From the NCBI GenBank assembly GCA_009667805.1, contig CM019065.1, positions 150,200,101 to 150,264,100 on the forward strand: a DNA stretch of 64,000 nt, written 5' to 3'. Made by a program: the position numbers and the translations under genes. The notes under the pieces were generated by a model, which saw nothing but the letters and a program-made list of their open reading frames with translations, ran no database searches and was not told where the DNA came from. Below are positions 21,412 through 23,966 of this stretch, one piece after another. The stretch comes from Leptobrachium leishanense (taxonomy: Eukaryota > Chordata > Amphibia > Anura > Megophryidae). Position 1 is the stretch's first letter. Every line of letters begins with the position of its first letter.

Positions 21412-21984
21412 GCTGGTTCAGGACTGGCTGCAGCTGCTTTCACTCTGGAGTGATGTATCCACGGGACCACCTCGGCAACCTTTACTGCTGTGGGGGTTGA
21501 TAACAGGACAAGATAAGGACCTCTCCATTTTGGACCTAGTGGATCATTTTTCCACTCTTTTACCCATACTGAGTCACCCGGACAATACTTATGCAGTGAA
21601 GGATACAGAAAATGCGGTATATTATCCCCCACCCAAATATTTAATTTCTGCATTGATTTACCCAGCATTACTACCTGATCATTTAGTCTAGTTTCTCCCA
21701 ATGCCCGAAGGTCCCCCTTAGTCCATTAATCAGAGGGGTTGGCTGTCCAAACATAAGTTCGTACGGACTTAGCTTCAATTGGGGGGTTGGTCTGCACCTA
21801 ATGTGCAAAAGGACTATCGGCAGCAAGTCCAACCAGCTCAATAACGTCTCTTGGCACAGTTTGGACATCAAAGTCTTTAGGGTACGGTTCATTCTTTCAA
21901 CTTTTCCCGAACTTTGGGGCCTGTAGGCGGTATGTAGCTTCCAGGTGATGCCCAGTAGCCGGGCAAGTTGTTGCAAACAGTTCT
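21339..21984 (-). pseudogene. ERV integrase remnant
   Basis: Only the back of integrase is present. The end of the catalytic core shows LHTAYRPQSSG and VERMNRTL, the Glu being the third DDE acidic residue. A C-terminal domain follows with KYCPGDSVWVKEW and GPKWRGPYLVLL. The zinc-binding domain and the first two catalytic Asp residues are absent; the OGFr domain stands where they should be. A frame change lies near 21700. The fragment is in a different frame from the preceding RNase H-OGFr ORF, so it is not made by simple read-through. It cannot function as integrase. Confidence 0.87.
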
Positions 21985-23966
21985 GGATACTTTTGGAAAT
22001 AGTATCGCCATGCGAAAAATAACAAATCTTGTCTGTCTTGTGAATCTCTTACTGCTGGTATGAAAAAGTTCATTGCACTCTTCTTCATTCTTGGCAGTCT
22101 GTTCTTGATAAGGATCTCCTTGAGGAAGAACCTCACCAGTGGGACTTGATATTCTTCTGCTCCCAATTCTCCCAGACTGTGCAGTATTCGTGTGATTCGT
22201 AGATTATTGTGAGGATTGATTGTCAAATTTTCAAAACGTGACGCGAAATTTTCTGCTCGTTCAACTTCAGTTGTTTCTTTGTCTTCCTCCTCCCCCACTA
22301 TTTTTACGCCGAAGAATTTCAGCATCATCTTGTAGGCTCTGCGCAGTCTTTGCTGGACTTCTGAGGTGTTAACCATTAGGCGTGTCTCTTGCGGATTTAG
22401 GGGAGTAGAGTAGAAATTTCGGCCTTGTGTCCAAGTTGGGAAAAGCCATTGGATATAATCATGATTGAGTTCTAACAGTTCATAATCATCTTGCCATTTG
22501 TGCCGTATTATTTCAATGAACTCGCCGTGGGGTTCAAACTTATTCAAATTCATATAGAACTCGTAATTTGGCATGGAAGGTTGAGGTTCTTGCTTGCAGA
22601 TCAGTACTTTAGCTTGATCTTCTGTTGGCGGTGGCGGTTTTGCAGCTGCTTTTGCGGCCTGGTCCGCGCGTCTGTTACCTTTTGGAATTTCGTCATGGCC
22701 TTTTTGGTGGCCACGACAGTGCATGATGCTGACAGCACTTGGTTTCCATACTGCTTCCAGGAGGGCCGCGATTTCAGCCGCATATTTGATTTGTTGTCCT
22801 GAAGACGTAAGTAGGCCTCTCTCTTTGTAGAGTGCACCATGTGCATGGACTGTCATGAAGGCGTACTTGGAATCTGTGTAGATATTTACTCTTTTGCCTT
22901 CAGAGATTTCAAGGGCTCTGGTTAAAGCTGTTATTTCGGCCAATTGTGCAGATGTATGGCCTGGCAGTGGCTTTGCTTCGATGACTTCTTCTGTTGAGAC
23001 TACTGCATAGCCGGAGACTTTCTTCCCATCATCCATGTAGCTGCTACCATCAGTGAATAGCTGTAGATCGTATTTGTCTAGGGGTACGTCTTGCAAATCC
23101 GGCCTGCTACTGAACACTTCTTCCATGACTTGGAGGCATTCATGATCTGGATCCTCTTCACAGTCAGGCAGTAGAGTAGCAGGGTTTAAGGTAGCGATGA
23201 GGTCCAAATGAACCCGTGGATTTTGACACATCATGGCTTGGTACTTCGTCATCCGGCTGTTGCTGAACCAGTAACCTCCTTTGACATTCAGCAGAGCCTT
23301 GACAGCGTGGGGCACCTTGACATGAAGAACTTGTCCAAGGGTCAGCTTGTCTGCTTCTGCTATCAGCATTGCGGTGGCAGCCACTGCTTTCAGGCATGGG
23401 GGTAGGCCGCAGGCCACAGGGTCGAGTTGCTTGGAGAGGTAGGCCACAGGCCTCAGCCATAAGCCAAAGGTCTGGACCAATACCCCTGTCGCTGTTTGAT
23501 TGTGTTCATGTACGAACAGCTGGAAAGGCTTGCTATGATCTGGCAGGCCCAGTGCAGGAGCTTCCATCAGCAGAGTCTTTAATTTCAGGAACGCTGCGGT
23601 TTGCTCTTCTTCCCAATGAAAGGGGTCTAGTTCTCCCCCCTTGGTGGCTTGATGAAGCGGCTTGGCAATATCGGCGAAGTTGGGGATCCACAGGCGGCAG
23701 AAGCCTGCAGCTCCCAAGAACTCACGGACTTGTCTCCTGGTCTTTGGTTGGGGTATGCGGCACACTGCTTCTTTCCTTTCTGCCCCCAGTGCACGATTGG
23801 TACCTGTTAACTGGAATCCCAGGTATTTTACACTCTGTTTACATATTTGTGCTTTCTTTTTAGACACTCTGTAACCTGCTTGGCTTAGCAGATATAGCAA
23901 AGCTTTTGTGGCGGATAAACAGTCTTTTTTTCTGTGGGGGAAGCCAGTGTAATTAATCATCAACAT
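21897..23966 (-). CDS. RT C-terminus / RNase H fused to OGFr domain
   Basis: This single 689-codon open frame begins just after the RT active-site motif and shows three parts. Residues 1-295 are RT thumb and connection (ATKALLYLLSQAGY, VKYLGFQL, REFLGAAGFCRLWIPNF). Residues ~298-445 are RNase H with all four acidic residues in place: Asp306 (FTDGSS), Glu344 (QLAEIT), Asp365 (YTDSKYAF) and Asp435 (RRADQAAK). Residues ~465-661 match the opioid growth factor receptor conserved domain. The frame then runs 28 codons out of phase through integrase sequence to a stop. The nominal Met is not a natural start, since upstream pol is in the same frame across a TAG. No stop occurs in 2 kb although the rest of the virus is badly broken. 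Confidence 0.88.
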   Translation of the reverse strand: MLMINYTGFPHRKKDCLSATKALLYLLSQAGYRVSKKKAQICKQSVKYLGFQLTGTNRALGAERKEAVCRIPQPKTRRQVREFLGAAGFCRLWIPNFADIAKPLHQATKGGELDPFHWEEEQTAAFLKLKTLLMEAPALGLPDHSKPFQLFVHEHNQTATGVLVQTFGLWLRPVAYLSKQLDPVACGLPPCLKAVAATAMLIAEADKLTLGQVLHVKVPHAVKALLNVKGGYWFSNSRMTKYQAMMCQNPRVHLDLIATLNPATLLPDCEEDPDHECLQVMEEVFSSRPDLQDVPLDKYDLQLFTDGSSYMDDGKKVSGYAVVSTEEVIEAKPLPGHTSAQLAEITALTRALEISEGKRVNIYTDSKYAFMTVHAHGALYKERGLLTSSGQQIKYAAEIAALLEAVWKPSAVSIMHCRGHQKGHDEIPKGNRRADQAAKAAAKPPPPTEDQAKVLICKQEPQPSMPNYEFYMNLNKFEPHGEFIEIIRHKWQDDYELLELNHDYIQWLFPTWTQGRNFYSTPLNPQETRLMVNTSEVQQRLRRAYKMMLKFFGVKIVGEEEDKETTEVERAENFASRFENLTINPHNNLRITRILHSLGELGAEEYQVPLVRFFLKEILIKNRLPRMKKSAMNFFIPAVRDSQDRQDLLFFAWRYYFQKYPELFATTCPATGHHLEATYRLQAPKFGKS
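21984..22574 (-). other. Captured opioid growth factor receptor (OGFr) conserved domain
   Basis: This segment of about 197 codons has the signature OGFr blocks in order: YEFYMN, NHDYIQWLFPT, VQQRLRRAYKMMLKFFG, VERAENFASRFENL, NNLRITRILHSLGELG, PLVRFFLKEIL and RSAMNFF. In vertebrates the domain occurs in OGFR (Met-enkephalin-binding, nuclear-envelope-associated, growth-inhibiting) and OGFRL1. Here it is uninterrupted by introns, so it came from a spliced RNA. It is in frame after RNase H and abuts truncated integrase at about 21984. I cannot tell from memory whether OGFR or OGFRL1 is the donor. The function of the viral copy is unknown. Confidence 0.9.

What the first reader, a model, noticed from the sequence alone, without database searches (positions are those of the whole stretch)
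21984..22574. A retrovirus has captured an opioid growth factor receptor (OGFr) domain
Seen: ~197 intron-free codons in the pol frame carry the OGFr signature blocks (YIQWLFP, NNLRITRIL, SLGELG, RFFLKEIL) directly after a complete RNase H. Known: OGFr is a cellular domain, found in vertebrates as OGFR/OGFRL1. Inference: the virus transduced a spliced host mRNA, as transforming retroviruses do. The location between RNase H and integrase is the slot where some lentiviruses carry dUTPase. I know of no described retrovirus with this cargo.
Basis: partly seen in the sequence, partly recalled or inferred. Interest (0 to 1): 0.96.

Follow-up and report, generated by a model that had tools for sequence, protein, structure and literature searches.

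The report
Toad retroviruses with captured OGFR domain
In the genome of what is most likely the toad Leptobrachium leishanense, a large family of endogenous retroviruses carries a domain of the host growth-control protein OGFR, in frame between the RNase H and integrase parts of its pol gene; the virus likely captured it once from a frog's spliced messenger RNA and apparently kept it under selection, which would make it a new working part of the viral polymerase protein.

Summary
The minus-strand pol ORF 21897-23978 matches Pfam OGFr_N (E 2.7e-67) right after RNase H, in a young provirus (18859-27449; 688-bp LTRs differing at 1 site; CCAT target duplication). This copy lost about 200 aa around the OGFr/integrase join; other copies show the join. 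In the same genome all 150 scored places (of 5871 first-look candidates) pass the OGFr_N cut-off. Of 68 distinct proviral loci, 50 show RNase H, OGFr, integrase in that order; of 49 tested, 15 are one open frame through all three. Elements without OGFr occur in the same genome; the one that could be read is sister to the OGFr clade (99/98 and 100/97), so one gain is simplest. The donor is OGFR, not OGFRL1, probably of pelobatoid frogs. Old copies keep OGFR sequence from near its start. dN/dS of OGFr is 0.13-0.34 by dS class, so it behaves as a functional Pol domain, though sampling favours low values. Its job is unknown; I propose a virion-packaged competitor of host OGFR. No such retrovirus was seen in the papers searched.

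The parts
18859..27449 (-). provirus, LTR to LTR (8591 bp)
   Evidence: paired LTRs and target duplication
26762..27449 (-). 5' LTR, 688 bp, TG...CA
   Evidence: one mismatch to the 3' LTR
18859..19546 (-). 3' LTR, 688 bp, TG...CA
18855..18858 (.). target-site duplication CCAT (left)
27450..27453 (.). target-site duplication CCAT (right)
25316..25894 (-). gag ORF with gammaretroviral-type matrix (Gag_MA, PF01140)
   Evidence: E 2.3e-11
23979..24341 (-). ORF with the start of reverse transcriptase
   Evidence: tblastn with P0053 and P0038; about 110 aa of RT missing between 23991 and 23930; no Pfam hit
21897..23978 (-). pol ORF: end of RT, RNase H, OGFr
22641..23066 (-). RNase H (residues 305-446)
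21990..22577 (-). captured OGFr_N domain (residues 468-663)
   Evidence: structure model
21990..22009 (-). deletion junction: P0001 residues about 461-660 (OGFr tail, IN zinc domain, first part of IN core) absent
21345..22009 (-). remaining part of integrase core and C-terminal domain, in two frames
   Evidence: rve_3 below its cut-off
19596..21417 (-). overlapping ORFs in the env position, frameshifted
   Evidence: by position only, no env family hit

Best explanation
A gamma-like retrovirus of frogs likely captured the spliced OGFR mRNA of a pelobatoid-lineage host once, and the conserved OGFr domain now sits in frame between RNase H and integrase as an apparently selected extra domain of Pol, predicted to be packaged in the virion beside RT and integrase. 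Shown: position, shared frame, one clade of OGFr-bearing elements, an OGFr-less sister element, intron-free sequence, low dN/dS. Inferred: donor lineage, capture by RNA recombination, packaging. Proposed mechanism (untested): the domain lacks the C-terminal basic motif of frog OGFR, so on release into a newly infected cell it would compete with full-length OGFR for its partners and relieve OGFR's restraint on cell growth. That would help a virus whose gamma-type relatives need dividing cells (recalled knowledge).
For: Pfam: RNase_H - OGFr_N - H2C2 - rve - MLVIN_C in one 882-aa public protein, P0001, and RNase H and/or integrase domains beside OGFr_N in other L. leishanense UniRef proteins. 50 of 68 distinct loci have RH>OG>IN; 15 of 49 with all three pieces are one open frame. 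Eight places in the same genome match the OGFr-less RNase H-IN junction of P0038 over at least 213 of 244 residues; one was read. RH+IN tree with OGFr columns left out: 31 OGFr rows one clade 99/98, sister to that OGFr-less element 100/97. OGFr tree: 57 ERV rows one clade (SH-aLRT 99); a careful tree puts 19 ERV rows next to Pelobates+Spea OGFR and apart from OGFRL1 (100/99). 18 of 72 locus rows (17 distinct places) align to OGFR upstream of the Pfam domain, some from OGFR residue 3. Host OGFRL1 splits the same stretch over five exon pieces. dN/dS: OGFr medians 0.13-0.34 by dS class, all 221 pairs counted below 1; RNase H 0.04-0.24; IN 0.04-0.09. OGFr model pLDDT 91. Pelobates OGFR's basic motif RKRK lies at residue 435, beyond the captured part; no basic cluster in the P0001 segment.
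Against: No protein, packaging or expression data. 34 of 49 loci are not one open frame. The pelobatoid donor is not significant (83/72; the tree with frog OGFRs apart from the ERVs is not rejected, p-AU 0.26), and L. leishanense OGFR itself could not be read. The loci were chosen by OGFr similarity and the dN/dS sets by being stop-free; both lower dN/dS. OGFr dN/dS is higher than that of RNase H and IN in every dS class: constraint is there but looser. Only one of the eight junction-spanning OGFr-less places was read. The competitor mechanism rests on reported biology of OGFR in other animals.
Confidence: 0.7

Rival explanations
1. The OGFr domain works inside Pol: a spacer or oligomerisation module that helps fold, cleave or assemble the RT/integrase part, with no role in host signalling.
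For: Kept in frame between two enzyme domains, with linkers of 19-34 aa before OGFr in 12 of the 15 open loci (79-118 aa in the other three); compact helical model.
Against: Related elements exist without it; 24 columns are invariant over the 30 host and viral OGFr rows aligned, which suggests that the ancestral surface or core still matters.
Confidence: 0.35
2. Passenger DNA: an OGFR retrocopy fell into one provirus and was carried along without function.
For: Many copies are broken: 34 of 49 loci are not one open frame through all three pieces.
Against: dN/dS below 1 in all 221 pairs counted; the frame stays open through OGFr in copies of different subfamilies.
Confidence: 0.04
3. Several independent captures, or capture of OGFRL1.
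For: OGFr divergence among copies is deep.
Against: One clade by OGFr and one clade by RH+IN with OGFr left out; OGFRL1 split off at 100/99.
Confidence: 0.03
4. Assembly artefact or misjoined host exons.
For: None seen beyond the window copy's own deletions.
Against: Same architecture at dozens of loci on different chromosomes and in annotated proteins.
Confidence: 0.01

Closest known systems
dUTPase inside pol of non-primate lentiviruses (PMC4299795 Table 1 note: encoded within pol; the exact slot after RNase H is from the finding and my recall)
   Same: An extra cellular-type domain carried inside Pol
   Different: dUTPase is an enzyme; OGFr is not a known enzyme and comes from a host growth-control gene
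CrocERV29 with KIT-ligand and CrocERV31 with nectin3 (PMC4299795, passages read)
   Same: ERVs that captured a host mRNA and show purifying selection; [quoted passage not shown]
   Different: KIT-ligand is an ORF between pol and env, and nectin3 came at the expense of env; here the cargo is fused inside Pol
Rous sarcoma virus and walleye retroviruses (named in PMC4299795 passages)
   Same: Growth-control host genes captured by retroviruses
   Different: Extra ORFs, not a Pol-internal domain
OGFr protein A0A481YX38 of Marseillevirus LCMAC202
   Same: OGFr fold in a virus (E 1.2e-6, TM 0.68/0.73)
   Different: DNA virus, 23% identity
Nematode effector MiISE6 with an OGFr_N region (PMC5876317 passages)
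   Same: OGFr_N used by a parasite; acts in the host nucleus
   Different: Short match (residues 35-62) in a secreted nematode protein with its own NLS
OGFr-less ERVs: L080 of the same genome, P0038, Podarcis, Anolis and caecilian ERVs
   Same: Same kind of gamma-like pol
   Different: RNase H followed directly by integrase

Membership tests
OGFr_N (PF04664) | profile score over the curated cut-off | tested here: met
   226.7 bits against 22
OGFR rather than OGFRL1 lineage | tree position | tested here: met
   OGFRL1 separated at 100/99
Class I (gamma-like) endogenous retrovirus | 4-bp target duplication, paired LTRs | tested here: met
   CCAT, TG...CA LTRs; ERV1 = 4 bp in PMC4299795 Table 1
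Class I (gamma-like) endogenous retrovirus | gammaretroviral matrix and MLV-type integrase C-terminal domain | tested here: met
   PF01140 in the window gag; PF18697 in the relative P0001, not scanned in the window copy
Class I (gamma-like) endogenous retrovirus | recognisable env | tested here: inconclusive
   ORFs in the env position, no env family in Pfam
Acutely transforming retrovirus | intron-free host cargo | tested here: met
Acutely transforming retrovirus | cargo replaces viral coding sequence | tested here: not met
   RNase H and integrase domains on both sides in P0001
Acutely transforming retrovirus | transforms cells | not testable with these tools
   no experiment
dUTPase-in-pol retroviruses | dUTPase domain | tested here: not met
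   Pfam finds OGFr_N and no dUTPase in the proteins scanned

The most novel reading that the evidence does not exclude
A retrovirus lineage turned a host growth-control protein into a permanent subunit of its own Pol, delivered in the incoming particle to release the cell from OGFR's growth restraint: a virion-borne signalling decoy inside Pol, a kind of Pol domain not described in the papers searched.
Probability: 0.3. Interest if true: 0.93.

Novelty: new variant of a known kind. Interest (0 to 1): 0.85.

Why it matters
Host gene capture by retroviruses usually costs the virus part of its own coding regions (PMC4299795 passage). Here a captured receptor domain became a lasting, in-frame part of Pol in a large family, with older copies that still show how the captured piece was trimmed and a sister element that shows the site without it. 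The OGFr fold has no relative among solved structures by sequence at E below 0.4 and no Foldseek match at E 0.001, and what the domain does is, to my knowledge, poorly known; a virus that kept only this part points to where its function lies.

Tried and rejected

Papers: searches (0 papers; 25 of 6,973 listed; 11; 1; 15 of 20 listed; 12 of 16 listed; 1; 1; 2). No listed title or abstract start describes an OGFr-carrying retrovirus. The single hits, and PMC8293304, were not opened. Passages only were read of PMC10435555, PMC6895153, PMC4299795, PMC5876317, PMC10668855 and PMC11749475; of all others only the listing was seen. PMC10435555 mined ERVs with identical LTRs and names L. leishanense among threatened species with ongoing retroviral invasion; its main text has 0 occurrences of 'opioid', 'captured' and 'accessory'; its supplements were not read.

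Full report
Observation. The minus-strand ORF 21897-23978 carries RNase H (residues 305-446) and OGFr_N (468-663; E 2.7e-67; 226.7 bits against a cut-off of 22).

Element. The ORF lies in a provirus at 18859-27449 (minus strand): LTRs of 688 bp, TG...CA, differing at one site, flanked by CCAT on both sides. One difference in 688 means a recent insertion, about 0.7 million years at an assumed 1e-9 per site per year (my rate). The gag ORF has a gammaretroviral matrix domain, and a complete relative, P0001, has the MLV-type integrase C-terminal domain. The window copy is defective: compared with P0001 it lacks residues about 461-660 (OGFr tail, integrase zinc domain, first part of the core), and about 110 aa of RT.

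Genome. 3.54 Gb in 4632 contigs, of which C1-C13 are 92 to 566 Mb long. The length of C4 (394,693,044) equals the scaffold N50 of 394.69 Mb reported for Leptobrachium leishanense, with 13 pseudochromosomes (PMC6895153 passages), and the nearest proteins, up to 97% identical, are from that species. The species is an inference, a strong one.

Other copies. PF04664 gave 5871 first-look candidates; 150 were scored and all 150 are over the cut-off. The candidates beyond 150 were not scored, so "large family" rests on at least 150 places. I examined 72 locus rows, or 68 distinct proviral places after taking out three repeats and the host exon L031. Order among the 68: RNase H > OGFr > integrase 50; OGFr > integrase 11; OGFr alone 4; RNase H > OGFr 2; OGFr > integrase > RNase H 1 (repeats removed by me; loci are 3.1-3.6 kb). 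Of 49 loci with all three pieces in order, 15 are one open frame from RNase H to the integrase zinc domain and 34 are broken. Of 37 protein relatives of the OGFr stretch, 20 are L. leishanense proteins, several with RNase H or integrase domains; the other 17 (host OGFR/OGFRL1, molluscs, unnamed) list PF04664 alone.

Site without OGFr. Of 120 listed relatives of the integrase part (163 found, 7993 candidates scored), only 4 carry PF04664, all L. leishanense. In P0038, Podarcis, Anolis and the caecilian Rhinatrema RNase H is followed directly by integrase. A natural junction stretch of P0038 used as query in the same genome gave 152 matches: eight cover at least 213 of 244 residues across the join and two more (71-243, 74-243) also span it. 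The other listed matches are one-sided, most ending at query residue 124-135, the end of RNase H; some reach 138-165, which I do not count, because two of those (C10:94001550, C13:21590525) overlap OGFr places. One of the eight, L080, was read: RNase H runs straight into integrase; the others could not be fetched. In a tree of RNase H plus integrase with OGFr left out, 31 OGFr rows form one clade (99/98), with L080 as sister (100/97) and P0038 next (96/96). By integrase core the nearest relative is a Pelobates fuscus ERV (90/93, not starred), whose gene model omits the junction, so it is silent on OGFr.

Donor. 57 of 69 viral OGFr rows (12 left out for length, stops or no hit) form one clade, SH-aLRT 99. 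In the careful tree (19 viral rows chosen of 57, 34 host rows) they sit inside frog OGFR next to Pelobates and Spea (83/72) and apart from OGFRL1 (100/99); the alternative is not rejected (p-AU 0.26). Of 16 copies that I chose, mostly older, compared with 130 host proteins, 13 have a pelobatoid OGFR as best hit, several by small margins or ties. Likely host OGFR genes lie at C12:9481291-9496835 (76% and 72% to Pelobates OGFR over the last exon) but could not be read.

Spliced origin and trimming. Host OGFRL1 in this genome splits the same stretch over five exon pieces; the viral stretch is continuous. Exons of host OGFR itself were not read. Eighteen of the 72 locus rows (17 distinct) match OGFR upstream of the Pfam domain, up to OGFR residue 3-5; in L015 and L034 a stop-free frame runs from the last residues of RNase H through a linker into this part. 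P0001 and its kin have lost it, keeping a short linker. So the virus took at least the first half of OGFR's coding region, ending near the F.WGP..KL..YK stretch, and later shortened it.

Selection. Among stop-free copies of 69 sequences, median dN/dS for OGFr (40 copies) is 0.34, 0.18, 0.13 and 0.13 in rising dS classes; for RNase H (28) 0.24, 0.06, 0.07, 0.04; for integrase (16) 0.04, 0.07, 0.09, 0.06. All 221 OGFr pairs with dS 0.02-1.2 are below 1; pairs outside that range were not counted. OGFr is less constrained than its neighbours in every class. Bias: copies were found by OGFr similarity and filtered for open frames.

Structure. The window domain is predicted with confidence (pLDDT 91.3, pTM 0.89), mostly helical. 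No relative is found among solved structures by sequence (best E 0.44) or by Foldseek at E 0.001. The only viral match at E 0.001 is a Marseillevirus OGFr protein (E 1.2e-6).

How it may work. As a Pol segment it is predicted to be made and packaged with RT and integrase, at the low level of Pol (recalled knowledge of retroviruses). OGFR is described as a regulator of cell proliferation (PMC10668855 passage) that needs NLS and C-terminal repeats for nuclear localisation (PMC11749475 passage). The captured part ends well before the RKRK motif of Pelobates OGFR. I therefore favour a competitor of host OGFR that eases cell-cycle entry; a structural role in Pol is about as likely. Neither was tested.

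Novelty. Host mRNA capture by ERVs is known (PMC4299795); this cargo inside Pol was not found in the papers searched (limits under Tried and rejected). The proteins themselves are in UniProt, uncharacterised or with automatic domain names.

Noticed in passing
window 41748-45033: G-rich tandem array, period 37, 86.7 copies, in the stretch of strong GC skew at 40-48 kb.
   Followed up: no
window 1906-5309: Tandem array of a 68-bp unit, about 50 copies in two rows.
   Followed up: no
window 17301-17455 and 28062-28503: Related 55-bp repeats (61-68% alike across the two sides) flank the provirus at a distance, as if it had inserted into or near a repeat array.
   Followed up: no
L076:3341-4474, L079:3983-4462: OGFr-like ORFs in contigs of 240 and 317 kb of the viral collection; in L076 about 200 aa of unidentified sequence precede it in the same ORF.
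   Followed up: partly
G000:C12:9481291-9496835: Two neighbouring host OGFR-type last exons, 76% and 72% identical to Pelobates OGFR.
   Followed up: partly
window 21990-22009 and 23930-23991: The provirus has near-identical LTRs yet two large pol deletions, so it was perhaps mobilised in trans by other copies; whether other copies share the junctions was not tested.
   Followed up: no
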